Positions 10,786 to 25,833 of a stretch of DNA of 26,230 nucleotides are shown piece after piece (the stretch's first letter is position 1; each line of letters opens with the position of its first letter). Made by a program: the position numbers and the translations under genes. This DNA comes from an uncultured Chitinophagaceae bacterium. Its GTDB lineage: Bacteria; Bacteroidota; Bacteroidia; Chitinophagales; Chitinophagaceae. The stretch covers positions 1 through 26,230 of the forward strand of contig CAMPGG010000009.1 of the NCBI GenBank assembly GCA_946885335.1. Reading direction: 5' to 3'. The notes below the pieces were generated by a model. The model made no database searches, was not told where the DNA came from, and was given only the letters and a program-made list of their open reading frames with translations.

Positions 10786-10805
10786 GATAATTAATTTGTC
10801 GTTGG

Positions 10806-11267
10806 TTATTTAGTTTGGGGTTGGTGTACTATTACTTCAGCCTGCATGTTCTGGTGTCCTACACCGCAGTATTCATGACAGGTAATTTTATATACACCGG
10901 GTTCGTCAAATCGAACAGTTGTTTTGTTGATATTTCCATACACCGCCATCATATTCACATTTTTTTCGGCGATGTTGAATCCATGAACAACATCTTTTGA
11001 AGAAAGATAAAAATCCACTTCACTGCCTACCGGTACATATATTTCAGCAGGTTCAAACTGCCACATACTGGCAACGGAAAATACCTGGAAGGTTTTTTCA
11101 TCTATCTGGTTAATCTTCGGTTCTGTATATGCTTTATCAAATGGAATGCATTCGGGAACATCCGTTTGATATTTATCTTTTGCATATAAAATGGAGAATA
11201 TGAACAGGCCGATTATAACGCCCGAAATCATTAATACTTTTTTTTCTGATTTATCAATTACAGACAT
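10806..11267 (-). CDS. ba3-type cytochrome c oxidase subunit II (CuA)
   Basis: A 153-residue subunit with one N-terminal membrane helix (about 9-28) and a periplasmic cupredoxin domain. The CuA site is complete: His95 (DVVHGFNI), then CHEYCGVGHQNM with Cys130, Cys134, His138 and Met141. The short length with a single helix matches subunit II of B-family oxidases, not the two-helix A-family form. It accepts electrons from a cytochrome c and passes them to subunit I. It lies 9 bases after subunit IIa and 20 bases before subunit I. Confidence 0.95.
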   Translation of the reverse strand: MSVIDKSEKKVLMISGVIIGLFIFSILYAKDKYQTDVPECIPFDKAYTEPKINQIDEKTFQVFSVASMWQFEPAEIYVPVGSEVDFYLSSKDVVHGFNIAEKNVNMMAVYGNINKTTVRFDEPGVYKITCHEYCGVGHQNMQAEVIVHQPQTK

Positions 11268-11276
11268 ATAAGAATT

Positions 11277-11462
11277 TTAACTGCGTTCAAGCATTAAAAA
11301 ATAAATTCCAAACCAAATAATGAGGCATAATACAATGAGCAATACGAAGAAGGCCAATGCTCCTTTAGGTATAAATTTTTGTTTAGCGGGGACTTTAATA
11401 TACTCAGCGCCGATGTTGGTGGTGGCAGCTGAAGAAGTTTCTCCCTGGTTTAGTTCTTCCAT
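11277..11462 (-). CDS. Small single-helix oxidase subunit (IIa-like)
   Basis: A 61-residue protein with a hydrophilic N-terminus, the segment KQKFIPKGALAFF and one membrane helix (about 34-57) ending FLMLERS. Its position directly before subunit II, its single helix and small size fit the extra small subunit (IIa) of ba3-type oxidases, which supplies the helix missing from the one-helix subunit II. Sequence in this class is poorly conserved, so the assignment rests mainly on position and topology. It is the first gene of the operon, with a -7 element TAATTTTG 22 bases upstream. Confidence 0.75.
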   Translation of the reverse strand: MEELNQGETSSAATTNIGAEYIKVPAKQKFIPKGALAFFVLLIVLCLIIWFGIYFLMLERS

Positions 11463-11484: not shown

Positions 11485-11528
11485 CAAAATTATTCTGTGC
11501 AATATGACTCGCTTATGACATAGGGTAT
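11485..11528 (-). promoter_or_regulatory. Oxidase operon promoter with possible half Fnr-like site
   Basis: On the minus strand TAATTTTG (11485-11492) matches the TAnnTTTG element and predicts a start near 11481, leaving a leader of about 19 bases. At the offset used by the nos, hemN and ric boxes (centre 33 bases upstream) the sequence is ATACC-CTAT-GTCAT: the promoter-proximal half fits, the distal half does not. A near-palindrome ACATA-GGG-TATGT overlaps it (11518-11530). The -7 call is good, the operator weak. Confidence 0.5.
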
Positions 11529-11555
11529 GTTAAGTGGGTGAGGTTAATCAAAAAG

Positions 11556-11585
11556 AAACCTGATGAAAATCAGGTTTTATTTTTT
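11556..11585 (+). terminator. Hairpin with T-run between divergent promoters
   Basis: AAACCTGAT / ATCAGGTTT form a perfect 9-base-pair stem with a GAAA loop. On the plus strand it is followed by TATTTTTT, and on the minus strand by CTTTTTG, so it could work in both directions. No gene on either strand obviously ends here. Confidence 0.65.
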
Positions 11586-11656
11586 GCAGGTGACATGTTC
11601 ATGATAGCATTCATCCCTTTAACGATAATAGATTCTGTTAAGATTTTTTTTATTGA

Positions 11657-11671
11657 CAAACATCCTGTTTG
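11657..11671. promoter_or_regulatory. Inverted repeat CAAACA-TCC-TGTTTG upstream of hemN
   Basis: A perfect 6-base inverted repeat with a 3-base spacer, centred 17.5 bases upstream of the centre of the hemN Fnr-like box. It may be a second operator or chance; the window gives no further copy. Confidence 0.35.
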
Positions 11672-11674: not shown

Positions 11675-11718
11675 TTAATGAAGATCATATTTTACAGGTA
11701 GCTGCCCTTTTATTTTTG
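11675..11718 (+). promoter_or_regulatory. hemN promoter with Fnr-like box
   Basis: TATTTTTG (11711-11718) is a perfect TAnnTTTG element. The box TTAAT-GAAG-ATCAT (11675-11688) is centred exactly 33 bases upstream of its centre, the same geometry as at nos and ric. The predicted start is at or just before the ATG at 11723, so the mRNA may be leaderless. Control of oxygen-independent heme synthesis by an Fnr-type activator is well known in other bacteria. Confidence 0.6.
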
Positions 11719-11722
11719 TGTC

Positions 11723-13099
11723 ATGAATTCAATTGAGCTAAACCCTTTACTGGTCAGAAAATACAATCAACCCGTACCCAGGTATACGAGTTATCCCACT
11801 GTGCCATTTTGGGAAAACCATATCGACAAGGACAGGTGGAGAAATGTGTTTTTACAGCAGTTTCACGATGTGAATCATACACAGGGGATCAGTCTTTATT
11901 TGCATCTTCCTTTTTGTGAATCTTTATGTACCTATTGCGGTTGCAATAAAAAGATTACTACTAATCATAAAGTAGAAAATGAGTATTTATCAGTGATTGA
12001 AAAAGAGTGGGATCTCTATCGTAAAATGATGAAGCAAACACCGGTTATCAGTGGACTTCATATTGGCGGTGGAACACCCACCTTTTTTTCTCCCAAAAAC
12101 CTGGAGCGGCTGATAAATTATATTTTAAAAGGCAGTATCATTCATCCCCGCCATGAATTCAGTATTGAAGGGCATCCAAACAATACCACGGAACAGCATT
12201 TAAAAGTTTTGTACAAATTGGGTTTCAGGCGTATCAGCTATGGCGTACAGGATAATGATCCTCAAGTGCAAAAAGTGATCAACCGTATTCAACCAATTGA
12301 AAATGTACAAAGAGCTACAGAACTAGCCAGGCAAATTGGATTCACCTCAGTAAATTATGACCTGATCTATGGATTGCCATTGCAAACCATGCAAAGTATG
12401 GAGCGCACCATAAACCAGGTGATTGAATTGAAACCTGACCGGATTGCATTTTACAGTTATGCTCATGTTCCATGGACCAGTAAAGGACAAAGACTTTTTG
12501 ATGAAACACATTTACCAGATGCTGAATTAAAAATCAACCTTTACTTAAAAGGGCAGGAGATGTTAACTGCCAATGGTTATACTAATATTGGCATGGATCA
12601 TTTTGCACTTCCCCACGATGAATTATATACTGCATGGAAGAATGGCACCCTGCACCGGAATTTTATGGGTTATACTTATCGCCAGAGTACATTGTTACTG
12701 GGTCTTGGTGTTTCCAGCATCAGTGATGCAGGCATTGGTTTTGCGCAAAATGAAAAAGCACTGCATGATTATTATGCAGCGATCAACAGTGGTGAATTGG
12801 CCATTACAAAAGGCTATTTTTTAAATGAAGATGACAAGGCGTTCCGCCAGTATATTTTAGATATTATTTGTAATGGAGAAACTAATTTTAAACCTGAGCA
12901 TTTACCGCTGATTAAAAAATACAGTTTCCCAATCCTGGAACTAATGAAACAAGATGGATTGGTAGAATATGACGAAAACGGCATCAGCCTGACCCCGCAA
13001 GGGCAATTTTTTCAACGCAATGCCTGCAGTGCATTTGATATGTTTTTACATATGAAAAGTAACTCAGGATCCATGCCTCAATTCAGCAAGGCTATCTGA
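11723..13099 (+). CDS. hemN: Oxygen-independent coproporphyrinogen III oxidase
   Basis: A 458-residue radical SAM enzyme that decarboxylates coproporphyrinogen III to protoporphyrinogen IX without oxygen. The HemN N-terminal signature PRYTSYPTVPFW (residues 19-30) and the cluster motif CESLCTYCGC (Cys65, Cys69, Cys72, plus Cys74) distinguish it from HemW-type heme chaperones. Other conserved parts are LHIGGGTPTFFSP, RISYGVQDNDPQVQ and the C-terminal HemN domain. Heme made this way supplies the oxidase and cytochromes encoded on both sides when oxygen is low. Only four bases separate the -7 element from the ATG, and no other start codon fits before PRYTSYPT, so translation without a leader is likely. 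It is divergent from the oxidase operon. Confidence 0.95.
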   Translation: MNSIELNPLLVRKYNQPVPRYTSYPTVPFWENHIDKDRWRNVFLQQFHDVNHTQGISLYLHLPFCESLCTYCGCNKKITTNHKVENEYLSVIEKEWDLYRKMMKQTPVISGLHIGGGTPTFFSPKNLERLINYILKGSIIHPRHEFSIEGHPNNTTEQHLKVLYKLGFRRISYGVQDNDPQVQKVINRIQPIENVQRATELARQIGFTSVNYDLIYGLPLQTMQSMERTINQVIELKPDRIAFYSYAHVPWTSKGQRLFDETHLPDAELKINLYLKGQEMLTANGYTNIGMDHFALPHDELYTAWKNGTLHRNFMGYTYRQSTLLLGLGVSSISDAGIGFAQNEKALHDYYAAINSGELAITKGYFLNEDDKAFRQYILDIICNGETNFKPEHLPLIKKYSFPILELMKQDGLVEYDENGISLTPQGQFFQRNACSAFDMFLHMKSNSGSMPQFSKAI

Positions 13100-13168
13100 T
13101 AATAAAGAATAACGTGTTATAGATATTGATCAAATATTTAATCGCGTTTTTTTACAACCGTATTTTTT

Positions 13169-14455
13169 ATGATAGGATCTGCGATCTTTTTTGAAAAATT
13201 AAAATCAACTGATCATGCGAGCATTAATCAGCGCCTTGACCTGTTAGTAAAACAATTACTGGGCATTTCATTTTTTAATCTTTTTTTAGTTGCTTGTTTG
13301 GGTTTATTACTCAGAATATTCCCATTCTTAAATGACTTTCCTTTATTATTTAAAAATGTATTGCATGGTCATTCGCATTTTGCTTTTGGCGGTTGGTTAA
13401 TGCCGGTGATACTGGCTTTACTTATCAGGTATTTTCCAGAACTCCGTCATTACATTTCGTTTAAGCATTGGCGTAACATTGCATTCATTTTTCTTATTTC
13501 CGCTTATGGTATGCTGCTTACTTTTCCATTTACCGGTTACGCATTGTTTAGCGTGATATTTTCCAGCATTTCTATTTTAGGTGGTTTTTATTTATCTGTT
13601 ATGTGCTGGAAGGCTATTGCATCATCTGCCAAAAAAATCTCATTACTTTTTTTAGGCTGGGCCTTTGTTTATTTTGTTGTGTCCTCTATTGGGCCCTTTA
13701 CTACCGGGCCATTAATTGTAATGGGTTATAAAGGCGAACCCATTTATTTCAATGCAATATATTTTTATTTACACTTTCAATATAATGGCTGGTTTGCATT
13801 TGTTGTTTTGGCATTGTTTTACCGGATGCTTGAAAACAGGAGGGTTAATACAAATGGTAAAAAGGTTTTGTTTGTATTAAATATGGCCATGTTACCTGCA
13901 TTTTTTCTTTCTGTATTATGGATGAAGCCTTCCTGGATCTTTTATGTTATTGGTGGAGTAGGAGCTGGTATACAATTATTAAGTATTTTTTGGCTGATGC
14001 AGGATCTTAAAAAAACAACTTGGAAATGGAATGGAGTTGAGAAGCTATTTATATTGGCAATGGGCGTTTTTATTTTTAAAATGATCTTACAATTCTTCAG
14101 TGCATTTCCTTTAGTAGCTGAAATAGCATTTACTTTTCGCAACTTTATTATCAGTTACCTGCATTTGGTATTACTCGGTTCTATCAGTTTATTTTTAATG
14201 GCTGCTGTTTTACAATCTGAGAAACGATCATTGACAGGAAAATTAAAAACGGGTATAAACCTTTTCTTCTTTTCTTTTATTACTACAGAATTAATATTGG
14301 TTCTCCAGGCTGCTTTAGCCTGGTTAGGTATTGTATTGCCCAATTACCAGGAGGGATTAATATTATTCAGTGCTTTTTTTCCCATTAGTTTTTGGATTAT
14401 CTGGACTGAAATCAGGTCTCAAATAAGTTTACAACCATCTCTTTCTTTAAAATAA
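13169..14455 (+). CDS. Multi-membrane protein with heme-copper-oxidase-like His motif
   Basis: A 428-residue protein with about 12 predicted membrane helices and almost no soluble parts. It carries HGHSHFAFGGW (His66, His68, His70), YLHFQYNGWF (His202) and YLHLVLLG (His332), each at or within helices. The spacing and the HxH-then-FGGW style recall subunit I of the heme-copper oxidase superfamily, but I do not find the full six-histidine set or a proton-channel signature. It is not a recognisable NnrS, which has a different N-terminal pattern. It lies 69 bases after hemN and may be cotranscribed; a half-site TTGAT is present in that gap. A heme-binding role in low-oxygen or NO physiology is inference from the histidines and neighbours. 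Function unknown. Confidence 0.8.
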   Translation: MIGSAIFFEKLKSTDHASINQRLDLLVKQLLGISFFNLFLVACLGLLLRIFPFLNDFPLLFKNVLHGHSHFAFGGWLMPVILALLIRYFPELRHYISFKHWRNIAFIFLISAYGMLLTFPFTGYALFSVIFSSISILGGFYLSVMCWKAIASSAKKISLLFLGWAFVYFVVSSIGPFTTGPLIVMGYKGEPIYFNAIYFYLHFQYNGWFAFVVLALFYRMLENRRVNTNGKKVLFVLNMAMLPAFFLSVLWMKPSWIFYVIGGVGAGIQLLSIFWLMQDLKKTTWKWNGVEKLFILAMGVFIFKMILQFFSAFPLVAEIAFTFRNFIISYLHLVLLGSISLFLMAAVLQSEKRSLTGKLKTGINLFFFSFITTELILVLQAALAWLGIVLPNYQEGLILFSAFFPISFWIIWTEIRSQISLQPSLSLK

Positions 14456-14483
14456 AAAATGCATGCTTTTCAAAGCATGCATT
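14451..14483 (-). terminator. Rho-independent terminator of the nos operon
   Basis: AATGCATGCTTT / AAAGCATGCATT forms a long self-complementary stem (14458-14483) with a tiny loop. On the minus strand it is followed by TTTTTTATTTT. It lies 22 bases beyond the nosY stop and separates it from the convergent gene. Confidence 0.85.
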
Positions 14484-14505
14484 AAATATTCAGTAATTAT
14501 ATTTC

Positions 14506-15273
14506 TTAAAGATCTTTTTTATTGAAAGATCTTACTGCCAGCATGATCGGGACAATGATCCAAATAAACATGATGCCAATTGTATAAAACAATCCAATGT
14601 TACTTCCAAAGAAATCCTTGTAAGTGGCACCGGTATATCCCATTAATGCACTTACATCCATTTGTAACATCAGGTAGATCCTGCCCAGGTCTATCGGGTT
14701 TAAAGAAGAAAGCAGCAAGGTGATCTTTTCCATTGGGTAATCACTGAAGGAGAAAAGGATCATCAGCACCAATCCATCATAGATCAACGCAAAATAAAAC
14801 CATAACAATAAGGCAATACCAATTCCTCGTGATTTGTCTTTTGATTTAACGGAAGCTAAAAATGCAATGGAAGTAAATGAAAGCGTTAACAGGGTACCAA
14901 CGATAATCAATGCAAGGCCAATATTATCCGGGTTGTAGATCAATACGGGCAAACCAACACCAATTAAAAATGCCGTAACCAATGATGATGCAATGCCACT
15001 GAATTCACTCAATAAAACTTTTTTCCGGCTGATGGGTTGCGTCAGCATCAGCTCAATAAATTCGTAAGAATTGTACCAGTGAATAGTTGAAAAAACCAGG
15101 CTTATCAATGGTACAACGATCAATACAACATTCAATAAACTCAATACAGCTTTTCCGCTGTTTGCTTCCATCTGGAAAAAACTCAATGATATTACCAGCA
15201 GGAACAGGGTATAAGCGATCGCCACTTTATTCCGGGCGATATCATATAAAACATATTTGGAGATCTTTAACAT
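14506..15273 (-). CDS. nosY: NosY-type ABC transporter permease
   Basis: A 255-residue membrane protein with six predicted helices, beginning LKISKYVLYDIARNK, as in NosY and other ABC-2 type permeases. With NosF it forms the NosFY ABC transporter that, with NosD, is needed to mature the copper centres of nitrous oxide reductase. The segment SLNPIDLGRIYLMLQMD is typical of NosY. The start lies 9 bases after the NosF stop, and it is the last gene of the operon before a strong terminator. Confidence 0.9.
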   Translation of the reverse strand: MLKISKYVLYDIARNKVAIAYTLFLLVISLSFFQMEANSGKAVLSLLNVVLIVVPLISLVFSTIHWYNSYEFIELMLTQPISRKKVLLSEFSGIASSLVTAFLIGVGLPVLIYNPDNIGLALIIVGTLLTLSFTSIAFLASVKSKDKSRGIGIALLLWFYFALIYDGLVLMILFSFSDYPMEKITLLLSSLNPIDLGRIYLMLQMDVSALMGYTGATYKDFFGSNIGLFYTIGIMFIWIIVPIMLAVRSFNKKDL

Positions 15274-15282
15274 GGTAATTCT

Positions 15283-16023
15283 TTATTTGGCAATTTTAAT
15301 ATAACGCAGATCAGGCTTTATGGTATTCTTCATGTGCCACGCAATAGCTTTATTCAATTTTTCTTCACCGGTTTCCTGGCGCAGATCTGATAATGATTTA
15401 AAAAATATCACTTTTCCTTCCTGGATGTATAAAACATCTGTAGTCAATTCTTCCAGGTCGCTGAGGATATGAGAAGTAATCAGGATTAATTTTCCTTTTT
15501 CTTTTTCATCCAATATTTTTTCCTTCAATATTTCGGATGAAAGCGGATCGAGGCCGGCAGTTGGTTCATCAAGGATCAATACATCCGCATCAAATAAAAA
15601 TGCCAATGCGGCGCTCACTTTCTGTCTTGTGCCGCCTGAGAGATTGCGCATGGATTTATCAAGAATGGTATCCAGTTTAAATTTGTAATACAATTCTTCA
15701 TCCAGGTTCTTTTCTGTATCCCGGATATTTTTAATCATTTTGAACAACTGTCCAATCTTCATATTATCAGGGTATCGACCAATTTGAGGCATATATCCAA
15801 TGCGACTTCTGTAATCGACTTGTTCCGTAATATCTACATCATCAAAAAATATTTGCCCGCTGTTGGGTGTAACCAGGCCGAGAATACTTTTAATGATCGT
15901 GGTTTTTCCGGAGCCGTTGGGGCCGATCAATGAAACGGCCTGTCCTTTTTTCAATTCAATATTGATATCTTTTAAGGCATGCAATTTTTTAAATTGCTTA
16001 TTGATGTTGGTTAGTCTGATCAT
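15283..16023 (-). CDS. nosF: NosF-type ABC transporter ATP-binding protein
   Basis: A 246-residue ATPase. Walker A is GPNGSGKT (34-41), the Q-loop is GYMPQ (76-80), the ABC signature LSGGTRQ (128-134), and Walker B LILDEP (149-154) with the switch histidine in ITSHIL. It powers the NosDFY complex used in copper-site assembly of N2O reductase. Its ATG overlaps the nosD stop by 4 bases, suggesting coupled translation. Neighbours nosD and nosY settle the assignment among many similar ABC ATPases. Confidence 0.93.
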   Translation of the reverse strand: MIRLTNINKQFKKLHALKDINIELKKGQAVSLIGPNGSGKTTIIKSILGLVTPNSGQIFFDDVDITEQVDYRSRIGYMPQIGRYPDNMKIGQLFKMIKNIRDTEKNLDEELYYKFKLDTILDKSMRNLSGGTRQKVSAALAFLFDADVLILDEPTAGLDPLSSEILKEKILDEKEKGKLILITSHILSDLEELTTDVLYIQEGKVIFFKSLSDLRQETGEEKLNKAIAWHMKNTIKPDLRYIKIAK

Positions 16024-17252
16024 AATTTAATTGCTTTCATTCTGGGTGATTGATCCGCGAAGTTTTCAGGAATAAGACTGGGAATGGCTTTTTCTGCCTT
16101 GTCCAATAAAGTGACCATAAAGCTTCGCATGAGCATTAATGAATTGGGGTTTTGTTCAATGATCATAGAGTATAAACTTACAGGGTGATAAGCAACATCG
16201 CCAATACCGTCTTTGTCCATATCATAACCTTCGTATTTATCCCAATAATTGTCATAAAATTCATTTTTCATCCTGCTGCCATTGGTGGCAATATCAAAAG
16301 TGTTATTCATGAAGTTGTTATGATGAAAAGTGTTTTCATCACAATTAGCCTGCACTTTCATGGACCAGCCATTAGCAGTAAAAGTGTTTTTTTGTACTTC
16401 CATCCGGTTGGTACCATCCAGGAAAATGCCTACCGTGTTCTGGTGAAAAATATTACCTACGATTTGCCCGTCAGAAATATCTTTTAATAAAATACCATAA
16501 GCGTTAGAACCCCAGTTTTGGTCAAAATTATTTTTGACCATTACAACTTTTTGAGAATACATCACAGCCACTCCGGCTCCATTGTTGCGAAAAGTATTAC
16601 CTATGTATGCATCATTATTGGAAAACATAAAATGTAATCCATAACGAATATTATGGGTGCTGAAATTATTTTTGATACTTGAATGTGTTACAAATTCAAA
16701 ATAGATGCCGTCCCGGTGTCCTTCCACATGATTATCCCTGATCACCATATTGGTGCATTGCCATAAGTGAATGCCATTGCCTGTATTCTGTTCATTTTTG
16801 GGATTTCCTTTTATGGTGTTATTGCGGACAATTCCCGTATGTGCATTGGCAACATGAATTCCAAAAAATGAATTGATGATCGTATTATTTTCAATAACAA
16901 AATGCGAGGCATCCACCGCATGTATTGAAGCCAGATCATTCATACTCGAACTGCCTGAATTTTGAAATTGAATGCCACTGATAAAAATACCTTTACCACT
17001 GATGGTAAGTATTTCATGTTCATTTTCACCATCTAAAATGGGTTCATCAATGCCAATCAGGTGAATGGATTTATTGATGATGATATTCCCTTCTTTATAC
17101 AAACCTTTTTTCAGTAGCACGGTATCGCCGTTACTGGCCATTTTAATGCCCTGTTTCAGTGTATTGATCACGCCATGTTTATCCACCACAATTGTGTTTG
17201 CAGAAGCAAAAAGAGAGGAGAGTGTAAAAAATATGAAAAGGAATTTGATCAT
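16020..17252 (-). CDS. nosD: NosD periplasmic maturation protein
   Basis: A 410-residue protein with a cleavable signal peptide (MIKFLFIFFTLSSLFASA) and a long right-handed parallel beta-helix (CASH/pectate-lyase-like repeats), seen as repeated N-x-I/F-x-x-N units such as NNTIINSFFGIHVAN and RDNHVEGHRDGIYFEF. The DNYWDKYEGYDMDKDGIGD segment near residue 350 is a NosD hallmark. NosD works with NosFY to pass copper and sulfur to the CuZ site. Its start overlaps the end of the NosL-fusion gene by 4 bases and its end overlaps nosF by 4 bases, so the maturation genes form a tightly coupled block. Confidence 0.95.
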   Translation of the reverse strand: MIKFLFIFFTLSSLFASANTIVVDKHGVINTLKQGIKMASNGDTVLLKKGLYKEGNIIINKSIHLIGIDEPILDGENEHEILTISGKGIFISGIQFQNSGSSSMNDLASIHAVDASHFVIENNTIINSFFGIHVANAHTGIVRNNTIKGNPKNEQNTGNGIHLWQCTNMVIRDNHVEGHRDGIYFEFVTHSSIKNNFSTHNIRYGLHFMFSNNDAYIGNTFRNNGAGVAVMYSQKVVMVKNNFDQNWGSNAYGILLKDISDGQIVGNIFHQNTVGIFLDGTNRMEVQKNTFTANGWSMKVQANCDENTFHHNNFMNNTFDIATNGSRMKNEFYDNYWDKYEGYDMDKDGIGDVAYHPVSLYSMIIEQNPNSLMLMRSFMVTLLDKAEKAIPSLIPENFADQSPRMKAIKL

Positions 17253-18286
17253 TTCAATACATTAAATAAGGTTGCCCAGTTGGTTACTTTGCCATCAATT
17301 TCTGCGGCTTTTTTTTCTGCAGCTTCCTTGTTTGTAAAAGCAGCGGCATTACTTCCCATCGGGCTTTTTAACTGGCTGCCAACTACAAAATAGGCGTCAT
17401 TCACTTTAATGAATTCGTGGTTGCCTGTATAATTTGTAAATAGTGTTTGGTGAATTTCGCTTAATTCAATCCCCCGGCGGTCCATAAATTTTCCAATACA
17501 TCTTGCATCATCGAATTTGTAAACCTTTCCTTTTTTTGATACGATTTCGCCGCCAAATTTGGGATCCATGATAGTCATTTTGCATTCTTCGCAATTGTCT
17601 TTGCCATATGCAATGGGTTCAGGTTCTGGTGTGCATCCTGCAAAAAATAAACAGGCGAAAATTGCGGTAACTACACTTACATTTTTACTGCTGGCCATAT
17701 GTTGTTTTGATTTTTTGTATTTTCTCCATTCAATAAACCAAACTGCAAAAGCTAATACAGCGGCACCGATAACAAACCAGGCGCCAAGATCCGGGTATGA
17801 GAAGGCATCGAAGTTAAGTAACTTTTTATGCCCTATTACGGGTGGTTGGTAAGTTAACCCGGGTACCTGGATAGCAGCAGTTGGATCAAGGTCATGACCG
17901 TAATCGTATCCCCACATATAAAAATCTACCAGGGCTGCTATACCAAATAATACCAGCAAAATGAGAAATGAAAAAAGCATTTTTCTGCTGCCGGTAAAAG
18001 CAACAATTAATCCATACAAAATAAAAAATCCGATGATAAAAGGGAGAATTTTAAATTCCGGGAACATATCTGCATTGATTGTTTTCATGCCGATGTAATG
18101 GTTTAAACCATTAATGATTTCAACCTGGCCGGTAATTTTATTAAGCCAGATCTGCATGGATAATCCTTCGGGGTATTGGGGAGCTATCAAATATATGGAC
18201 CAGGTAGGGAGAAAATAAGTCGCGATCATTGCGATGGCCGCAATGGCAACTAAAATTCTCGACGTATTGCTCATCTTTTTTTTCAT
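17249..18286 (-). CDS. nosL: Membrane protein (NosB-like?) fused to NosL lipoprotein
   Basis: A 345-residue protein of two parts. Residues 1-195 have four predicted membrane helices (about 10-28, 80-98, 102-122, 168-186) and the motifs YLIAPQYPEGLSMQIW, INGLNHYIGM and GYDYGHDLDP; this resembles a membrane protein I recall from clade II nos clusters, perhaps NosB. Residues 197-345 are NosL, the outer copper-delivery protein, with CEECKM (Cys232, Cys235, Met237) and the FDDARCIGKFM region. Oddly the NosL part starts with its own apparent lipoprotein signal: Met197, a hydrophobic stretch and the lipobox FFAGC (Cys218). Internal initiation at 17698 could therefore also make free NosL. The frame is intact, so this is a real fusion or a very tight gene pair read through in frame. 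Confidence 0.85.
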   Translation of the reverse strand: MKKKMSNTSRILVAIAAIAMIATYFLPTWSIYLIAPQYPEGLSMQIWLNKITGQVEIINGLNHYIGMKTINADMFPEFKILPFIIGFFILYGLIVAFTGSRKMLFSFLILLVLFGIAALVDFYMWGYDYGHDLDPTAAIQVPGLTYQPPVIGHKKLLNFDAFSYPDLGAWFVIGAAVLAFAVWFIEWRKYKKSKQHMASSKNVSVVTAIFACLFFAGCTPEPEPIAYGKDNCEECKMTIMDPKFGGEIVSKKGKVYKFDDARCIGKFMDRRGIELSEIHQTLFTNYTGNHEFIKVNDAYFVVGSQLKSPMGSNAAAFTNKEAAEKKAAEIDGKVTNWATLFNVLK

Positions 18287-18298
18287 GGTTAATTTCTT

Positions 18299-18331
18299 AA
18301 AAACTACCGGAACGCATTAGGTCCCGGTAGT
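18299..18331 (-). terminator. Terminator or attenuator between fasciclin and NosL-fusion genes
   Basis: On the minus strand ACTACCGGGAC / GTTCCGGTAGT pair over 11 bases (one G-T), loop of 7, followed directly by TTTTT. It ends only about 13 bases before the ATG at 18286, inside the operon, so it would lower rather than abolish downstream expression, or expose a separate regulated transcript. Confidence 0.75.
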
Positions 18332-18357
18332 AAAACAAAACACAAGACCTACTTTAG

Positions 18358-18918
18358 TTATTTTGTTGGTGGCAGTAATACCGCATCTATAACATGAATT
18401 ACACCGTTGGATGCGGGTATGGATGTAACGATATTGGCCGCATTGTTTACAACGACTTTTCCATCTTTATTTGTAATGGATATATTTCCTCCATTTACCT
18501 GGTTATATGTATAACCATCAATTAAAAGGCCTTCATTTAATATTCCAAGGTAAACGTGGTATTGTAAAATATCCTGTAACTGCTCCCTGTTCTCATCTTT
18601 CATCAGGTTGTCCAAAGTTTCTTTTGGCAATTTATCGAATGCAGCATTGGTTGGTGCAAAAACGGTAAATGGACCTGCATTGGATAATGCATCTACCAGC
18701 TGTGCCTGCTTGATGGCTGCTACCAGTGTTGTGTGATCTGCGGAACCAGCCGCAACTTTTACAACATCTTTTTGTGATTCATCATCTGCCACTGCTGATT
18801 GTCCTACCGTGGTACCCGTTGTTGTGGATTCTTCTGTAGTGGTGGTCTTTGTTTCATTATTGCAGGAAAAAAAGCTTACTAACAGTAATGTGCATGCTAA
18901 ATTTAAAACCTTTTTCAT
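18358..18918 (-). CDS. Fasciclin-domain lipoprotein
   Basis: A 186-residue secreted lipoprotein. The signal peptide ends with a lipobox at Cys19 (VSFFSC), followed by a Thr/Ser-rich linker (about 22-45) and one fasciclin (FAS1) domain from about 52 to the end. Its signatures are TLVAAIKQAQLVDALS, GPFTVFAPTNAAFDKLP and the C-terminal NGVIHVIDAVLLPP. FAS1 domains are beta-rich modules used in adhesion or protein contact; no enzymatic role is known for this class. It lies between nosZ (59 bases upstream) and the NosL fusion, bounded by a hairpin on each side, so it is cotranscribed with nosZ. A role as a partner of NosZ or its cytochrome on the membrane surface is inference. Confidence 0.92.
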   Translation of the reverse strand: MKKVLNLACTLLLVSFFSCNNETKTTTTEESTTTGTTVGQSAVADDESQKDVVKVAAGSADHTTLVAAIKQAQLVDALSNAGPFTVFAPTNAAFDKLPKETLDNLMKDENREQLQDILQYHVYLGILNEGLLIDGYTYNQVNGGNISITNKDGKVVVNNAANIVTSIPASNGVIHVIDAVLLPPTK

Positions 18919-18937
18919 GACTTTAGTTTTTGGTTTA

Positions 18938-18971
18938 ACAGCGGATGTTGCAGCAAAGCAACATCCGCTGT
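18938..18971 (-). other. Intercistronic hairpin after nosZ
   Basis: A perfect 14-base-pair stem, ACAGCGGATGTTGC / GCAACATCCGCTGT with a 6-base loop, begins 7 bases after the nosZ stop. No T-run follows on the minus strand, so it is unlikely to be a simple terminator. Such hairpins often protect the upstream mRNA from 3' decay, which would favour NosZ over later gene products. Confidence 0.8.
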
Positions 18972-18977
18972 CATTTA

Positions 18978-20996
18978 TTAATTGGTGCCTTTATTATTTG
19001 TATCGGTAGTGGCTGCAGTTGATGTAGCAGCTTTTTTACCGGTGTGAAAATAAATGGGTACATTACTTCCGGCAGGTGATACTCTTATATAGCCTTGCAT
19101 TTCCTGGTGCAATGCAGAACAGAAGTCAGTACAATAGTATGGGAATATTCCAACCTTTTCGGCTTTCCATTTTAATGTTTGTGTTTCGCCAGGCATGATC
19201 AATATCTCGGCGGTTTTAGCACCTTTAATAGCGAAGCCATGCGGTACATCCCAATCCTGTTCAAGGTTGGTTACGTGGAAATATACATCATCACCAACTT
19301 TTACACCTTCAATATTATCCGGGGTCAGGTGAGAACGGATGGCTGTCATCCAAACATGTACCTGGTTCCCTTTTCTTTCTACTTTTGTCTGGCCTTCACC
19401 TTTTGCAACATATGGGTGATTATTTTCTTCAATCTTATATATTTTCTTTTGTTTGTTCATTATTTTTTCTGCAGGAATTGATTCCGCATAGTGTGGTTCA
19501 CCGGTTGTAGGGAAGTCAAGGATCAATTTCATTTTCTCGCCACTGATATCATACAACTGTGCACTTTGAGCCAATTCGGGTCCTGTAGGTAAATAACGAT
19601 CTTTAGTGATCTTGTTATAAGCAACCACATATTTTCCATAAGGCTTTTTAGTTGGGCCGCCAGGAACTGATAAGTGACCAATGGAATAGTATGTTGGCAC
19701 ACGATCCAGTATTTTAAGATCTTTTACACTCCATTTAACTATTTCAGAAGACACGAACATAGATGTATAAGCGTTGCCCTTGTTGTCAAACTCTGTATGT
19801 AATGGTCCCAGGCCGGGTTTCTTTACTTCACCATGTAATACTGCGTCATAATTTAAAACAGGTATGCCATCATAGTTGCCATCATATTTTTTATCAGCAA
19901 TGGCTTGTTGCATTTTGGTGAAAGAAAATACAGGAATTATAGCAGCCAATTTACCAGAACCAACAATATATTCTCCGGTAGGATCGGTATCGCAGCCATG
20001 CGGCGATTTTGGACAAGGGATCATATAAAGAATGTCAGGTAATTCAGCAGGATCCAATACAAGTACTTCTGTTTTGATAGTTGAAGTTGCCATATGAGTG
20101 CTTTCATCCATCACATTATGTGCATACCTGACTGCCTGTTTTTTCCCTTTCCCGGCTTTAATATACTCCTCTGCTTTTTTCCAGTTAACAGCCATAATGA
20201 AATCTTTGTCTTTGGCAGATGCATTTACTTCTAACAAAGTATTTGCTTTCTCCGTGTTATAACTGCTGAAGAAAAACCAACCATGTGATTTGCCTTTACC
20301 AGCACGGGCCAGGTCAAAGTTTACACCCGGTGTTTTGATCTGGAATGCAATGTCCATATGTCCTGTTGTTTGGTCCACAGAAACAAAACTGATGGTTCCT
20401 TTAAAATTTTCTTTGTAGGTGTCAATGGGAACATCACCATCCGCATCATCCAGCGGAACACTAAAACGGGTTCCTGCAACAATGTATTCAGTGTTTTCGG
20501 TAATAAAAGGAGAGGAGTGGTTTCCTGCGCTGTTTGGCAATTCCAGTATCTCTGTTGTTTTAAATGTAGACAGGTCAACTTTTGCTAATCTTGGCGTATT
20601 ATTTCCATTGGCAAATGCCCAGCGGCCATCATGTTCACCGTCTGTTGTTGAAAGGGCAATGTGGTGAAGGTCATCCCATGGAACAAAACCATGTGAGGTT
20701 TCCAGCATGGGTTTTGATTCTTCGCTGTATCCCCATCCATTTTCGCCAAATTGCGAAAAGACCGGAACAATTTTGAGTAAGCGGCCTGAAGGCAGGCCAT
20801 AAACACCAATCTGGCCGTTGAAACCTCCTGATACGATGTTGTAAAATTCGTCATACTTACCCGGAGCAACATACGCTTTTTCAGCATCACCGCCCGCAGC
20901 AGCTTCGGCAGTTTTTGGTTTGCAGCTTTGCATGGTGCTAAATAGCAATCCAATGGTAGTTGCGGTTAATAATAGTTTTGTTTTTTTGAGTAGCAT
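18978..20996 (-). CDS. nosZ: Nitrous oxide reductase, clade II type, predicted lipoprotein
   Basis: A 672-residue enzyme that reduces N2O to N2 outside the cytoplasmic membrane. The N-terminus is a Sec-type signal without twin arginine and ends in a likely lipobox at Cys25 (TMQSC), unlike Tat-exported clade I NosZ. The seven histidines expected for the CuZ cluster can be matched: His111, His112, His160, His333 (SPHGCDTDP), His400 (GPLHTEF), His441 (IGHLSVPGG) and His502 (EPHYAES). The C-terminal cupredoxin domain has the CuA ligands His586 (VPHGFAI), Cys622, Cys626, His630 and Met633 in CTDFCSALHQEM. The C-terminal tail is Thr/Ala-rich. It is the second gene of the operon, 48 bases after a cytochrome c gene, with no nosR nearby, as usual for clade II. 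Confidence 0.97.
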   Translation of the reverse strand: MLLKKTKLLLTATTIGLLFSTMQSCKPKTAEAAAGGDAEKAYVAPGKYDEFYNIVSGGFNGQIGVYGLPSGRLLKIVPVFSQFGENGWGYSEESKPMLETSHGFVPWDDLHHIALSTTDGEHDGRWAFANGNNTPRLAKVDLSTFKTTEILELPNSAGNHSSPFITENTEYIVAGTRFSVPLDDADGDVPIDTYKENFKGTISFVSVDQTTGHMDIAFQIKTPGVNFDLARAGKGKSHGWFFFSSYNTEKANTLLEVNASAKDKDFIMAVNWKKAEEYIKAGKGKKQAVRYAHNVMDESTHMATSTIKTEVLVLDPAELPDILYMIPCPKSPHGCDTDPTGEYIVGSGKLAAIIPVFSFTKMQQAIADKKYDGNYDGIPVLNYDAVLHGEVKKPGLGPLHTEFDNKGNAYTSMFVSSEIVKWSVKDLKILDRVPTYYSIGHLSVPGGPTKKPYGKYVVAYNKITKDRYLPTGPELAQSAQLYDISGEKMKLILDFPTTGEPHYAESIPAEKIMNKQKKIYKIEENNHPYVAKGEGQTKVERKGNQVHVWMTAIRSHLTPDNIEGVKVGDDVYFHVTNLEQDWDVPHGFAIKGAKTAEILIMPGETQTLKWKAEKVGIFPYYCTDFCSALHQEMQGYIRVSPAGSNVPIYFHTGKKAATSTAATTDTNNKGTN

Positions 20997-21044
20997 TTTT
21001 TTGAAAATTTAAGAGTTACCTGAAATTGAATTAAATTAATCGGG

Positions 21045-21509
21045 CTATTTAACACCGTCGTTATGACGCATAAATTCTAAAATATGGCGGGCTTCTTCTT
21101 TTGAAACATTTTGATTCGGCATTCTGACAAGACATTGTTCCAATAGTTTTTGGGCTTCCGGGTCCTTTTCCAGCATCACATCTACATTTGTGATCATGTT
21201 CATGATCCAAACGGGTTCTCTCCTGGTCGTAATTCCACCCCAACCCGGGCCTACAACCCTTTCATCAGTTAGTTTATGACAGCTTTGGCATTTGAGTTCA
21301 TAAGTCTGTTTTCCAGCATCTACCCAGGTTGCATTCAATGGTGTAGTTACTTCAACTTCGGATGGTTGAATTAAATCAGGGTGAACTTCCTCGGCAGTCG
21401 AACTGGTTGTTTCAGTTTCAGTTTCAGTTGATGTGGAACTGGAATTGTCTGAACATGAAATGAAAAACGTGAAGCAAAGAATAATAAGCGTAGCAATGGA
21501 TTTGTGCAT
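21045..21509 (-). CDS. Lipoprotein c-type cytochrome of the nos operon
   Basis: A 154-residue lipoprotein: signal peptide with lipobox at Cys19 (FFISC), a Ser/Thr/Glu-rich linker (20-42) and one cytochrome c domain with CQSCH (74-78), GPGWGGI and probable axial Met130 (CLVRMPNQNV). As first gene of the nos operon it is the likely electron donor to the CuA site of NosZ; both proteins are predicted to be lipid-anchored on the same membrane surface. The start at 21509 follows a 20-base predicted leader from the TAnnTTTG element. A monoheme cytochrome encoded directly with nosZ has precedent in clade II clusters (for example the nosC genes), although orthology is not shown. Confidence 0.93.
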   Translation of the reverse strand: MHKSIATLIILCFTFFISCSDNSSSTSTETETETTSSTAEEVHPDLIQPSEVEVTTPLNATWVDAGKQTYELKCQSCHKLTDERVVGPGWGGITTRREPVWIMNMITNVDVMLEKDPEAQKLLEQCLVRMPNQNVSKEEARHILEFMRHNDGVK

Positions 21510-21532
21510 AAAGGGGTTTGTTTTAGTGAAAA

Positions 21533-21598
21533 CAAAAGTATCGGGATACTTTTTTTATAGTGATGATGTTTATCATCGTTACTATTGATGTTTGTCAT
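21533..21598 (-). promoter_or_regulatory. nos operon promoter with tandem Fnr-like boxes
   Basis: On the minus strand TACTTTTG (21533-21540) fits the TAnnTTTG element and predicts a start near 21529. No -33 TTTG is visible. Instead there is a symmetric box ATGAT-GTTT-ATCAT (21563-21576), centred 33 bases upstream of the -7 centre, i.e. about -41, and a second box TTGAT-GTTT-GTCAT (21585-21598) exactly 22 bases farther. Both share the core TGATGTTT and resemble the Fnr/Dnr consensus TTGAT-N4-ATCAA. This is the layout of a class II activator promoter with a tandem upstream site. Confidence 0.75.
21535..21552. promoter_or_regulatory. Perfect palindrome overlapping the nos -7 element
   Basis: AAAGTATCGGGATACTTT is a perfect 8-base inverted repeat with a 2-base spacer covering most of the -7 element. 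A protein bound here would block the promoter. Its arms share GTATC/GATAC with the palindrome at 1453-1468, though the spacer differs. Confidence 0.5.
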
Positions 21599-21736
21599 CA
21601 GGTTCACCATACCAGCTACACAAGTAAATAAAGACAGAAACCAGGTCTTATTTTAATTATAAATCTAAAATAATATGAAGAATAAAAAACATGCAAGATT
21701 AAATTTTTGCGCCTTGGAATAAAATCATGTGTCAGT

Positions 21737-21780
21737 ATGATTAATGTCAGGTTTTTAGGGATGGCGTTCAGTTTAATTTG
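21737..21780 (+). promoter_or_regulatory. ric promoter with Fnr-like box
   Basis: TTAATTTG (21773-21780) matches TAnnTTTG with one mismatch and predicts a leader of about 23 bases. The box ATGAT-TAAT-GTCAG (21737-21750) has its centre exactly 33 bases upstream, as at nos and hemN. The rest of the 297-base divergent region 21510-21806 is AT-rich with no convincing gene. Confidence 0.65.
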
Positions 21781-21806: not shown

Positions 21807-22565
21807 ATGCAAACAGACATTGTTAAGGTAAGTGATGCTGATATTGTTACAGACATTGTAAAAAGGGATTATCGAACGGCAGATATCTTTCAGCGTTTCG
21901 GTATCGATTTCTGCGGCAATGGAAAATTGCCATTAGATATGGTATGTAAAAACAATGAAGTAAATCTTGCGGAAATAAAAAAGGCGTTGAACGAGATGTC
22001 AATACCCTATTATTTATCTTCTTCCATTGCATATAATGAATGGTCAATTGATTTTTTGCTGGATTTTATTGTAAATGTTCATCATGACTATTTAAAAAAG
22101 ACAGTTCCCATTATTAATAAATTCATTACTGAAATTGCGGCAGGGCATAACCATACAATCTCTTTTATCGCGGATTTGAAATCTGAATTTGATAAATTAA
22201 GTACAGTAATGCTACCGAAGTTGCAGGAAGAAGAAGATATCATTTTCCCATATATCAGGCAAATTGCACATGCTTATCAAAACACGGAACCTTATGCACG
22301 ACTGCTTGTCAGAACATTGCGGAAACCCCTGGAAACAATGATGCTGCATAACCAGGAATTTACAAACCACGTGTTCAATGAATTGAATCGTATAACGAAT
22401 CAATACAACTTACCCGCAGATTCATGTACAACGCACCAGGTTTTGTATAATAAATTGCAGGAGCTGGAAAAGGATTTTTCCCAGCATATTTACCTGGAAA
22501 ATAATGTTCTTTATCCTAAAACCATTGCAATGGAAAAAGAGTTATTAATGCAGTCTGGTTTATAA
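21807..22565 (+). CDS. ric: RIC-type di-iron iron-sulfur cluster repair protein (ScdA/YtfE family), variant
   Basis: A 252-residue protein of the family that repairs iron-sulfur clusters after NO or oxidative damage. Residues about 8-65 are the ScdA_N (DUF542) domain with GIDFCGNG (Cys36) and Cys47; the usual motif has two adjacent cysteines. Residues about 80-245 form the hemerythrin-like four-helix bundle: VHHDYLK (His92/93), PKLQEEEDIIFPYI (138-150), MMLHNQEF (His181) and SQHIYLENNVLYP (His227, Glu231). In the second helix the family has a histidine ligand in H-x-x-x-E-E before the LFP motif; here that position is Lys138. Iron binding may be altered. It is divergent from nos, has an Fnr-like box, and precedes the PAS kinase by 140 bases. 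Confidence 0.88.
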   Translation: MQTDIVKVSDADIVTDIVKRDYRTADIFQRFGIDFCGNGKLPLDMVCKNNEVNLAEIKKALNEMSIPYYLSSSIAYNEWSIDFLLDFIVNVHHDYLKKTVPIINKFITEIAAGHNHTISFIADLKSEFDKLSTVMLPKLQEEEDIIFPYIRQIAHAYQNTEPYARLLVRTLRKPLETMMLHNQEFTNHVFNELNRITNQYNLPADSCTTHQVLYNKLQELEKDFSQHIYLENNVLYPKTIAMEKELLMQSGL

Positions 22566-22705: not shown

Positions 22706-24283
22706 ATGAAGAGACTCAGTAGCGGACGGGCAAAAGCATACGCTATTATTGTTTTTATATTGACCTTCCTTGTCATTTTCCTGCTGCCCGGTTATACTGT
22801 AACCGCAGGTGGATTGCTTCTCGGTATATTTTTTACAACATTTATTGAGAGTAAGATGTCCACTGTCATTGCAGGTTTGGCAAGTATACTGATCATTCTC
22901 TTTTCTGTTTTTTTCTTTGAAAGTGAAATGTTAAGGTCCTATATAATAACACAAACCATTTTCCGTATAGCCCTGGTGATTTTTGCTGTTCTTGTTGTGT
23001 TCTATATTAAAAACTTATACAGGGACCTGCAGTTTGATAAAACCCACATGACTTCGCTTTTTGAAAATGCAACTGAAGGAATTTTACTTACCAACAATAA
23101 GGGTGTTATCATCCTGGTAAATCCTGCAGCCGAAAGAATTTTTCAATACAAGGCCAATGAACTTATAAACAAACCAATTGAAGTATTGATACCCCAGCAA
23201 TATCGGCATGGGCATGTAAAACTTCGGGAAGGATTTCATAAGCATCCATCAGACCGGCAAATGGGTTCGGGCAGAGATTTGAATGGCGTTAGAAAAAATG
23301 GTGACCAAATACCAGTGGAAGTGAGTTTAAGTTTTTACCACCACCAGAATGAATTGTTCGTAATCGCATTTATTGTCGACATCACTTTAAGAAAAGAATC
23401 GGAAAGTGAAATGCTTAAGCAGCAAATGAAACTTGAAAAAGTAACCAACGACATTCGTAAATTAAATGCGCAACTGGAAATCAAAGTAGAAGAAAGGACA
23501 GCCATTTTAAAAGAAGCATTGCAGCGTTTGGAACAAAGCCAGCTGGAATTAAATGAGGCCCTGGATAAAGAAAGACAGTTAAATGAAATCAAAAGCCGTT
23601 TTGTTTCCATGGCCTCGCATGAATTCAGAACTCCATTAAGTACCGTATTATCTTCAGCCTCACTGCTTTCAAAATACACAACCACTGAAACCCAGTCAAA
23701 AAGAGACAGGCATATAAGCAAGATCAAAGATTCTGTAAAACATTTAAATGATATCCTGGAAGATTTCCTTTCGCTGGGTATGTTGGACGAGGGCCGGGTA
23801 AATATTTCTTTTATAAATTTTAATCTCCCGGTTTATATGAAAGATTTAACCGAGGAAATGGGTGGGTTGCTAAAAGATGGACAAACCATCGATTTTCACC
23901 ATGAAGGCAATGAAGAAATTTATTCAGATCCCAAATTATTAAAAAATATATTGATCAACCTGTTAACCAATGCCATAAAATTTTCGGATGAAGGCAAACA
24001 GATTATGCTAAAAACAATTTCAGATGGTGAAAAAACCACGATCATTGTAAAAGACAGTGGCATCGGTATTGCCCCTGAAGATCAAAAGCATTTATTCAGC
24101 AGCTTTTTCCGCGGAAAAAATGCGTTGAACATCCAGGGAACGGGTTTAGGTTTGCATATTGTAAACCGTTATTTGAAACTTCTTGGCGGTCATATACATT
24201 TGCATAGTGAACTAAATATAGGAACTACAATTACCATTCAATTACCAGTAAAAAAAGAACATGAAATCAGTCCTCATCATTGA
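22706..24283 (+). CDS. Membrane PAS sensor histidine kinase, FixL-like PAS
   Basis: A 525-residue kinase. Three to four membrane helices (about 11-30, 33-47, 52-71, 80-101) precede a PAS domain (about 112-230), a coiled coil (about 235-298), HisKA with His305 (MASHEFRTPLS) and HATPase_c (TNAIKFSDEG, DSGIGIAPED 450-459, GTGLGLHIV 478-486). In the PAS domain the stretch from Pro163 to Arg190 aligns without gaps with remembered FixL sequence, putting His170 at the heme-ligating histidine and Arg190 at the distal arginine. The same pattern also occurs in non-heme PAS domains, so heme is only a possibility. The gene overlaps the regulator gene by 23 bases, a clear two-component pair. A TAATTTTG element at 22591-22598 may be its own promoter. 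Confidence 0.93.
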   Translation: MKRLSSGRAKAYAIIVFILTFLVIFLLPGYTVTAGGLLLGIFFTTFIESKMSTVIAGLASILIILFSVFFFESEMLRSYIITQTIFRIALVIFAVLVVFYIKNLYRDLQFDKTHMTSLFENATEGILLTNNKGVIILVNPAAERIFQYKANELINKPIEVLIPQQYRHGHVKLREGFHKHPSDRQMGSGRDLNGVRKNGDQIPVEVSLSFYHHQNELFVIAFIVDITLRKESESEMLKQQMKLEKVTNDIRKLNAQLEIKVEERTAILKEALQRLEQSQLELNEALDKERQLNEIKSRFVSMASHEFRTPLSTVLSSASLLSKYTTTETQSKRDRHISKIKDSVKHLNDILEDFLSLGMLDEGRVNISFINFNLPVYMKDLTEEMGGLLKDGQTIDFHHEGNEEIYSDPKLLKNILINLLTNAIKFSDEGKQIMLKTISDGEKTTIIVKDSGIGIAPEDQKHLFSSFFRGKNALNIQGTGLGLHIVNRYLKLLGGHIHLHSELNIGTTITIQLPVKKEHEISPHH

Positions 24284-25711: not shown

Positions 25712-25833
25712 ATTGGTAGCTTTTAATGGCTCTTGAAAGCATTTGACTCATACCAAAATTAGCTTTTGTAAAAAGTACGCTAACTGACAACAACAATAGG
25801 CGCAGGTGATTTATATCATTAACAAAAAGGAAA

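What the first reader, a model, noticed from the sequence alone, without database searches (positions are those of the whole stretch)
11675..21780. Shared promoter geometry at nos, hemN and ric: one small regulon
In all three promoters an Fnr-like box is centred exactly 33.0 bases upstream of the centre of a TAnnTTTG-like element: nos (21563-21576), hemN TTAAT-GAAG-ATCAT (11675-11688), ric ATGAT-TAAT-GTCAG (21737-21750). The identical offset on both strands is hard to explain by chance. The oxidase operon (11485-11528) and the gene at 25711 keep only the promoter-proximal half, so their membership is doubtful; adenine deaminase by chance shows a TCAT at the same offset, a caution against half-sites.
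Basis: partly seen in the sequence, partly recalled or inferred. Interest (0 to 1): 0.75.

Follow-up and report, generated by a model that had tools for sequence, protein, structure and literature searches.

The report
Low-oxygen regulon with paired DNA boxes
The shared spacing in front of the nitrous-oxide, heme and iron-repair genes is real: it is the standard activator position, and a second box two DNA turns further up marks a wider low-oxygen regulon in related bacteria that is probably run by an unusual two-component regulator encoded next door.

Summary
Boxes at nos, hemN and ric lie 33.0 bases from a Bacteroidota -7 element. Published numbering centres that element at -8.5, so 33.0 means -41.5, the ordinary class II activator site. 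It recurs genome-wide: 62 of 192 box-element pairs in 16 related genomes.

Box-22-box-33-element (up to 3 mismatches) occurs 719 times in 60 family genomes, against 9 for the reversed pattern. Across the phylum it tracks a receiver-CRP/FNR fusion regulator encoded at 24261-25316: 13 of 15 genomes with it, 4 of 103 without. Its partner kinase has a FixL-like PAS domain.

Best reading: a FixL-like kinase and a fused "FixJ+FixK" activator switch on nos, hemN, ric, oxidase and stress genes at low oxygen. One regulon, wide in most relatives, though only 7 sites were found in the nearest genome. Binding, phosphorylation and oxygen sensing are inferred. New variant of a known kind.

The parts
21533..21540 (-). 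nos promoter -7 element TACTTTTG (6/6 to TAnnTTTG)
21563..21576 (-). nos proximal box ATGATAAACATCAT (8/8), offset 33, position -41.5
   Evidence: core unchanged in G055
21585..21598 (-). nos distal box ATGACAAACATCAA (8/8 to TGAY/RTCA), offset 55, position -63.5
   Evidence: core unchanged in G055
11711..11718 (+). hemN -7 element TATTTTTG (6/6); ATG starts 4 bases after it
11675..11688 (+). hemN proximal box TTAATGAAGATCAT (7/8), offset 33
11653..11666 (+). hemN distal box TTGACAAACATCCT (7/8 to TGAY/RTCA), offset 55
   Evidence: identical in G055
21773..21780 (+). ric -7 element TTAATTTG (5/6)
   Evidence: unchanged in G055
21737..21750 (+). ric proximal box ATGATTAATGTCAG (8/8 to TGAY/RTCA), offset 33
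21715..21728 (+). ric distal half-box TGGAATAAAATCAT (6/8; only the ATCA half is intact), offset 55
25754..25761 (-). -7 element TAATTTTG of the gene at 25711
25784..25797 (-). proximal box of the gene at 25711, ATTGTTGTTGTCAG (6/8), offset 33
25806..25819 (-). distal box of the gene at 25711, ATGATATAAATCAC (8/8), offset 55
11485..11492 (-). -7 element TAATTTTG of the oxidase operon
11515..11528 (-). weak proximal site of the oxidase operon ATACCCTATGTCAT (6/8), offset 33
11538..11551 (-). oxidase box TTGATTAACCTCAC (7/8), offset 56
   Evidence: core unchanged in G055
11560..11573 (-). oxidase distal box CTGATTTTCATCAG (8/8), offset 78, 22 bp from the previous box
   Evidence: core unchanged in G055
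22706..24283 (+). PAS histidine kinase; PAS domain resembles FixL (His170 and Arg190 at the heme-ligand and distal positions)
24261..25316 (+). response regulator: REC domain fused to a CRP/FNR-type cNMP-binding and HTH module; proposed regulator
21045..21509 (-). cytochrome c, first gene of the nos operon (nosZ 18978-20996, fasciclin, nosL, nosD, nosF, nosY to 14506)
21807..22565 (+). ric (iron-sulfur cluster repair di-iron protein)
   Evidence: NCBIfam match 163.7 bits, below its 204.7 cut-off; Pfam ScdA_N and Hemerythrin over cut-off
25355..25711 (-). 118-aa protein of an unnamed family (no NCBIfam or Pfam match); confident model, no significant PDB match
7930..11462 (-). oxidase operon: small membrane ORF from 11462, COX2, COX1, SCO, cytochrome c

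Best explanation
The shared geometry is a class II activator site (box centre -41.5) plus a second site two helical turns upstream (-63.5). Both are bound by the REC-CRP/FNR response regulator at 24261-25316, whose partner kinase at 22706-24283 carries a FixL-like heme-type PAS domain. When oxygen falls the kinase would phosphorylate the receiver domain. Two regulator dimers would then bind the 22-bp pair side by side, and the proximal dimer would contact RNA polymerase. This switches on N2O reduction (nos), oxygen-independent heme synthesis (hemN), iron-sulfur repair (ric), terminal oxidases and stress genes. Shown here: the geometry, its conservation, its genome-wide recurrence, and its co-occurrence with the regulator. 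Inferred: binding, phosphorylation, oxygen as the signal, and activation rather than repression.
For: Geometry; -7 element numbering from PMC6847099 (passages). Genome-wide offset peak: 62 of 192. Second box: over 80 distinct offset-33 hits in the fetched loci the mean core score is 5.42 at shift -22, against at most 3.52 at any other shift from -46 to -1. Box-box spacing is 22 in 40 of 58 exact pairs. Tandem pattern with up to 3 mismatches: 719 against 9 reversed controls in 60 genomes. Co-occurrence: 47 family genomes with a full-length regulator average 14.7 sites, 13 without average 2.2 (3.2 against 0.74 per Mb, p = 8.6e-6 per Mb). Phylum sample: 13 of 15 with the regulator have the pattern, 4 of 103 without (p = 3.3e-12); after removing genomes already in the family sample, 9 of 11 against 3 of 102. 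nos promoters: 14 of 15 loci with the regulator (65% identity or more, the window among them) nearby have the pair at exactly 33/22; 0 of 18 loci with a lone Crp/Fnr gene do. In G033 the regulator is the only protein with an HTH_Crp_2 match over cut-off. Its recognition helix keeps the Glu and Arg of CRP/FNR in 30 of 30 rows with data, some rows repeating a genome (residue roles recalled). The other Crp/Fnr protein in the window (472-1101) has, by eye, Val at the Glu position. Kinase PAS against FixL E = 1e-11; His170 in 29 of 29 rows with data, Arg190 in 27 of 29, counted by eye, rows including repeats of a genome. In G033, G027 and G055 all 9 sites with at most 1 mismatch lie before nos (3), Rrf2 (2), cbb3 oxidase (2), a CcoI-like ATPase (1) and the trmD region (1).
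Against: No binding, expression or oxygen data. The p-values treat related genomes as independent. Four phylum genomes have the pattern without the regulator, and two (41-43% identity) have the regulator without it. Two further genomes (of L005 and L013) have a tandem site with 2 mismatches before a lone Crp/Fnr gene but no fusion at E <= 1e-60. In the nearest genome, G055, only 7 sites were found, 4 of them unassigned, and the single-box scan there did not beat its control clearly (178 against 146). In the window only nos matches fully; ric has one intact distal half-site and the proximal box at 25711 is 6/8. The oxidase pair sits at 56/78, not 33/55. Between window and G055, box cores are unchanged at 59 of 64 positions against 129 of 176 for other bases, but ric contributes 4 of the 5 changes (12 of 16 core against 29 of 44 other bases unchanged there). 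Heme binding by the PAS domain is a motif inference. G055 is fragmented, and the window's own genome is not held.
Confidence: 0.77

Rival explanations
1. A classical FNR- or CRP-type protein (lone Crp/Fnr, possibly with an iron-sulfur cluster) binds the boxes; the fusion regulator has another job.
For: The box is what FixK2 binds (consensus in PMC6710368, passages) and FNR binds (recalled). Lone Crp/Fnr-like matches lie in 18 of the 76 nos promoter loci examined. Some tandem sites occur in genomes without the fusion. The window itself encodes a second Crp/Fnr-type protein at 472-1101.
Against: G033 shows no Crp/Fnr HTH over cut-off except the fusion yet has 11 tandem sites. The pair co-occurs with the fusion across the phylum. 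nos promoters beside a lone Crp/Fnr lack the exact 33/22 pair in 18 of 18 loci.
Confidence: 0.13
2. A layered system: the fusion regulator acts directly in the window's lineage; in others it switches on a lone Crp/Fnr gene which then activates nos, as FixJ switches on FixK. This extends the best explanation rather than opposing it.
For: 8 of 18 lone Crp/Fnr genes beside nos have a tandem site upstream (score 19 or more of 22), and the genomes of all 8 encode the fusion.
Against: L051 and L066, two of the 8, show the same boxes and are near relatives. 10 of 18 do not reach the threshold. Of the 8, only L079 has a nos box of 7/8 or more with an element of 5/6 or more at 33/34; L051, L062 and L066 have a 6/8 box. 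The upstream stretch was taken relative to a homology match, not a mapped start. No expression data.
Confidence: 0.3
3. The boxes are unrelated inverted repeats, such as transcription terminators, and the spacing is chance.
For: The oxidase distal box lies in a terminator-like hairpin (about 11556-11577, by eye) in the window.
Against: 0 tandem sites in 60 shuffles; 719 against 9 in genomes; in G055 the hairpin is broken but the box core is kept.
Confidence: 0.01

Closest known systems
FixLJ-FixK2-NnrR cascade of Bradyrhizobium diazoefficiens (PMC6710368; start of abstract in a listing and passages)
   Same: FixL-like PAS kinase, CRP/FNR-type DNA box (FixK2: TTGA/C-N6-T/GCAA), targets nos and hemN; cbb3 oxidase and CcoI as targets is recalled.
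   Different: Here the receiver domain and the CRP/FNR domain are one protein; the promoters carry two boxes 22 bp apart and a Bacteroidota -7 element.
Class II CRP/FNR-dependent promoters (recalled)
   Same: Proximal box centre at -41.5.
   Different: A second box at -63.5 is systematic. In at least 6 relatives (L007, L019, L020, L024, L068, L133) one pair serves two divergent promoters.
FNR of Escherichia coli (recalled)
   Same: Box core TGAT-N4-ATCA; Glu and Arg in the recognition helix.
   Different: The regulator has one cysteine, in the receiver domain, so no FNR iron-sulfur cluster; it has a receiver domain.
DosR dormancy regulon of mycobacteria (recalled)
   Same: Universal stress proteins, Hsp20 and CBS proteins under a heme-kinase two-component system.
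   Different: DosR is a NarL-type regulator; no homology was tested here.

Membership tests
Class II CRP/FNR-dependent promoter | Activator box centred at -41.5 | tested here: met
   Offset 33.0 to an element centred at -8.5 by published numbering; start sites in this genome are not mapped
Class II CRP/FNR-dependent promoter | Activation through contact with RNA polymerase | not testable with these tools
   needs in vitro transcription
FixLJ-FixK system | Kinase with a heme-binding PAS domain | tested here: inconclusive
   PAS matches FixL at E = 1e-11 and the ligand His and distal Arg positions are kept; heme itself not tested
FixLJ-FixK system | Separate FixJ response regulator with its own HTH | tested here: not met
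   The receiver is fused to a CRP/FNR module
FixLJ-FixK system | Separate FixK-type CRP/FNR protein acting on nos and hemN | tested here: inconclusive
   In G033 only the fusion has an HTH_Crp_2 over cut-off; the window has another Crp/Fnr protein at 472-1101 without the recognition Glu; other lineages have a lone Crp/Fnr beside nos
FixLJ-FixK system | Targets include nos, hemN and cbb3 oxidase | tested here: met
   Sites before these genes; by sequence only, in different genomes
FNR (iron-sulfur oxygen sensor) | Cysteine cluster for a 4Fe-4S centre | tested here: not met
   One cysteine in the 351-aa regulator, beside the receiver Asp
FNR/CRP DNA-binding family | Crp-type HTH with recognition-helix Glu and Arg | tested here: met
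   PF13545 E = 2.4e-18; Glu and Arg in 30 of 30 rows with data
Response regulator | REC domain with phospho-acceptor Asp and a neighbouring kinase gene | tested here: met
   PF00072 E = 7.9e-28; CDIMMP motif in 33 of 33 rows; kinase gene overlaps by 23 bases; phosphotransfer not tested

The most novel reading that the evidence does not exclude
Bacteroidota have condensed the FixL-FixJ-FixK oxygen cascade into two proteins. The receiver-CRP/FNR fusion works as a phosphorylation-driven pair of dimers that reads two boxes exactly 22 bp apart, often in a mirror-symmetric promoter serving nos and its divergent neighbour. This is the main low-oxygen and N2O-reduction switch of a large part of the phylum.
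Probability: 0.4. Interest if true: 0.78.

Novelty: new variant of a known kind. Interest (0 to 1): 0.62.

Why it matters
Bacteroidota carry much of the clade II nosZ that consumes the greenhouse gas N2O (recalled), and how they switch it on is little known. In the ten paper searches made here no listed title or abstract start describes this regulator or the paired-box promoter; most subscription papers are not in that library, and only two listed papers were opened. A 65-base pattern that can be scanned for, plus a named regulator and kinase, makes the question directly testable.

Tried and rejected
Whole genome of the window: not available as a file and not held; relatives were used instead. 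G055 (regulator 99% identical) served as nearest genome, but the DNA is only about 84% identical, so it is another species or a distant strain.

The Crp/Fnr protein at 472-1101 was considered as the regulator and set aside: Val in place of the recognition Glu by eye, and no second HTH_Crp_2 protein seen in G055 (fragmented assembly).

Fixed-spacing single-box scan of G055 with up to 2 mismatches: 178 hits against 146 controls, so single boxes with mismatches are not informative; only 0-1 mismatch or the pair is.

The terminator reading of the hairpin at about 11556-11577 was rejected.

The 118-aa protein: no NCBIfam or Pfam match; of the 120 homologs listed, the named ones are nearly all 'hypothetical protein'; model pLDDT 90.9 but no PDB match at E <= 0.001. 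Its function stays open.

In the cluster counts the loci were largely fetched because they hold nosZ or a site, so those counts are biased; the genome counts are not. The NosZ scan kept the best 80 of 574 relatives. The lists of places were cut off by the tool; the per-genome counts were whole.

Mended on recheck: the claim that the regulon is not small was limited (G055 has 7 sites), a separate FixK was changed from 'not met' to 'inconclusive', L005 and L013 were added as contrary cases, and the odds of the best explanation and of two rivals and the interest score were moved by 0.01 to 0.05 for these reasons.
Full report
WHAT WAS CHECKED. The ric element is the weakest (TTAATTTG, 5 of 6). In Flavobacterium johnsoniae the -7 element is T-12 A-11 n n T-8 T-7 T-6 G-5, with the start 4-5 nt downstream (PMC6847099, passages seen). 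Its centre is therefore -8.5, and an offset of 33.0 puts the box at -41.5. That is the class II activator position (recalled), so the offset by itself is the expected place for any CRP/FNR activator.

IS IT MORE THAN CHANCE. In the window, box-element pairs are most frequent at offset 55 (6), next at 33 and 14 (4 each); the mean over offsets 10-80 is 1.2, and 30 shuffles give 0.7 at 33 (maximum 2). In 16 related genomes the exact pattern TGAY-N4-RTCA with a gap of 8-38 to TANNTTTG gave 192 matches. Of these 62 have offset 33, 19 have 34, 12 have 35, 11 have 32, and the remaining 27 offsets share 88. The reversed pattern gave 95 in all (tables); in G055 it was 10 against 10, so there the totals alone say nothing.

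THE SECOND BOX. Upstream of 80 distinct offset-33 hits in the fetched loci, the mean core score at shift -22 is 5.42 of 8, against at most 3.52 at any other shift tested. When two exact boxes are sought with any gap of 0-30, 40 of 58 pairs in 8 genomes are exactly 22 bp apart. The combined pattern (box, 22 bp, box, 33 bp, element, up to 3 mismatches) gives 719 hits in 60 genomes of the family against 9 for the reversed pattern. In the window it occurs four times, at nos (0 mismatches), hemN (2), the gene at 25711 (2) and ric (3), and 0 times in 60 shuffles. The oxidase operon has a pair 22 bp apart at offsets 56 and 78, found also in G055. In L002 a pair lies at 54 and 76, and in L137 and L008 at 33 and 55 with 3 mismatches.

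CONSERVATION. Against G055 the cores of the nos, ric, hemN and oxidase pairs are unchanged at 59 of 64 positions, other bases at 129 of 176 (p = 0.0013); 4 of the 5 core changes are in ric. In at least six relatives (L007, L019, L020, L024, L068, L133) the same pair is read from both sides, element-33-box-22-box-33-element, with nos on one side and an Rrf2-family regulator gene on the other (Rrf2 named by Pfam on one member).

WHO BINDS. The ric gene is followed by a PAS histidine kinase and by a response regulator whose receiver domain is fused to a cNMP-binding/Crp-HTH module. Of the 80 NosZ loci, 14 hold the regulator at 65% identity or more near nos, 12 of them with the kinase and 10 with ric next to it (counted by eye). 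In 60 family genomes, the 47 with a full-length homolog average 14.7 tandem sites (median 11, minimum 1) and the 13 without average 2.2; per Mb 3.2 against 0.74, p = 8.6e-6. In a phylum sample of 118 genomes, 15 have the regulator at E <= 1e-80 and 17 have tandem sites with at most 2 mismatches (102 hits against 2 controls); 13 have both, and 4 of 103 have sites alone. Without the genomes already seen in the family sample it is 9 of 11 against 3 of 102. Genomes are not independent, so the p-values overstate. At nos itself, 14 of 15 loci with the regulator nearby have the pair at exactly 33/22; of 18 loci with a lone Crp/Fnr gene, 3 pass the score threshold at other spacings and none at 33/22. 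Loci with a 30-64% match: 4 of 5 pass (2 exact). Loci with neither in the fetched stretch: 17 of 38 pass (10 exact). In G033 the fusion is the only protein with an HTH_Crp_2 match over cut-off. These are associations, not binding data.

WHAT IT SENSES. The kinase's PAS domain aligns with FixL at E = 1e-11. The residue aligned with FixL's heme ligand (His; role recalled) is His in 29 of 29 rows with data, and the distal Arg is kept in 27 of 29; the rows include repeats of the same genome. Heme binding and oxygen sensing are inferred.

REGULON CONTENT. In G033, G027 and G055 all 9 sites with at most 1 mismatch precede nos (3), Rrf2 (2), cbb3 oxidase subunit genes (2), a CcoI-like ATPase (1) and the trmD region (1). 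G055 has 7 sites with up to 3 mismatches: nos, ric, hemN and 4 unassigned, each of the 4 with 3 mismatches. Among 218 distinct sites with up to 3 mismatches in all fetched loci, the larger groups downstream are the nos cytochrome (30), Rrf2 (17), lone Crp/Fnr (12), CcoI-like ATPase (12), cbb3 oxidase (10), hemN (8), ric (7) and the 25711 family (7), then universal stress proteins, Hsp20, OsmC, CBS, baeRF, cytochromes and FTHFS, and many singletons. This list is biased by how the loci were fetched.

A POSSIBLE REWIRING. In lineages with a lone Crp/Fnr gene beside nos, 8 of 18 such genes have a tandem site upstream. Of those 18 loci 15 were searched for the fusion: 13 genomes have it, among them all 8. 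Two other genomes with a tandem site before a lone Crp/Fnr gene (L005, L013) do not have it. The nos promoters of the 8 are mostly weak at 33/34: only L079 has a box of 7/8 or more with an element of 5/6. It looks like a FixJ-to-FixK step, which the window's lineage would skip, but the evidence is thin.

VERDICT. The hallmark is the pair of boxes, the regulon is wide in most relatives though perhaps not in the nearest genome, and the best candidate regulator is the REC-CRP/FNR fusion with its FixL-like kinase. It works like the FixLJ-FixK system but is not filed as a member: a separate FixJ is not met, a separate FixK is inconclusive. In the ten paper searches no listed title or abstract start describes it; of the listed papers only PMC6847099 and PMC6710368 were opened (passages).

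Noticed in passing
11711-11725: hemN mRNA is predicted to be leaderless: the ATG begins 4 bases after the -7 element, where transcription should start. The distance is 4-5 in 6 of the 8 hemN sites listed (18 and 19 in the other two).
   Followed up: partly
25355-25711: 118-aa protein of a large unnamed family (2464 hits among 3696 candidates), near the fusion regulator in 5 of the 6 NosZ loci where it was found; confident model without a significant PDB match, best weak matches ubiquitin-like. In G055 the stretch holding it (about 25320-25840) is missing beside the regulator.
   Followed up: partly
L194:802-2418 and L217:447-2066: Two kinase relatives have Met instead of the distal PAS Arg; such a change might alter gas binding. 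Both genes have a tandem site upstream with 1 mismatch, which is why they were fetched.
   Followed up: no
G001:C13:57696-57728 and 57843-58418: Small extra peaks in the offset table at 22-23 (14 of 192) and 44 (9 of 192), about one turn either side of 33; one offset-23 site lies just before a 246-aa Crp/Fnr frame, perhaps autoregulation.
   Followed up: no
11280-11462 minus: Small membrane ORF (61 codons read, no stop in the stretch) between the oxidase promoter and COX2; probably the real first gene of the oxidase operon.
   Followed up: partly
22591-22609: The kinase has a perfect -7 element TAATTTTG (22591-22598) without a box at -41.5, but a 7/8 box (22596-22609) overlaps its expected start; possible negative feedback, not tested in relatives.
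   Followed up: no
L022, L051, L062, L066, L074 nos promoters: In several lone-Crp/Fnr lineages the nos promoter shares an odd box ATGATTGnACGCAT at offset 33 before a TAAnnTTG-like element; perhaps the site of the lone regulator.
   Followed up: no
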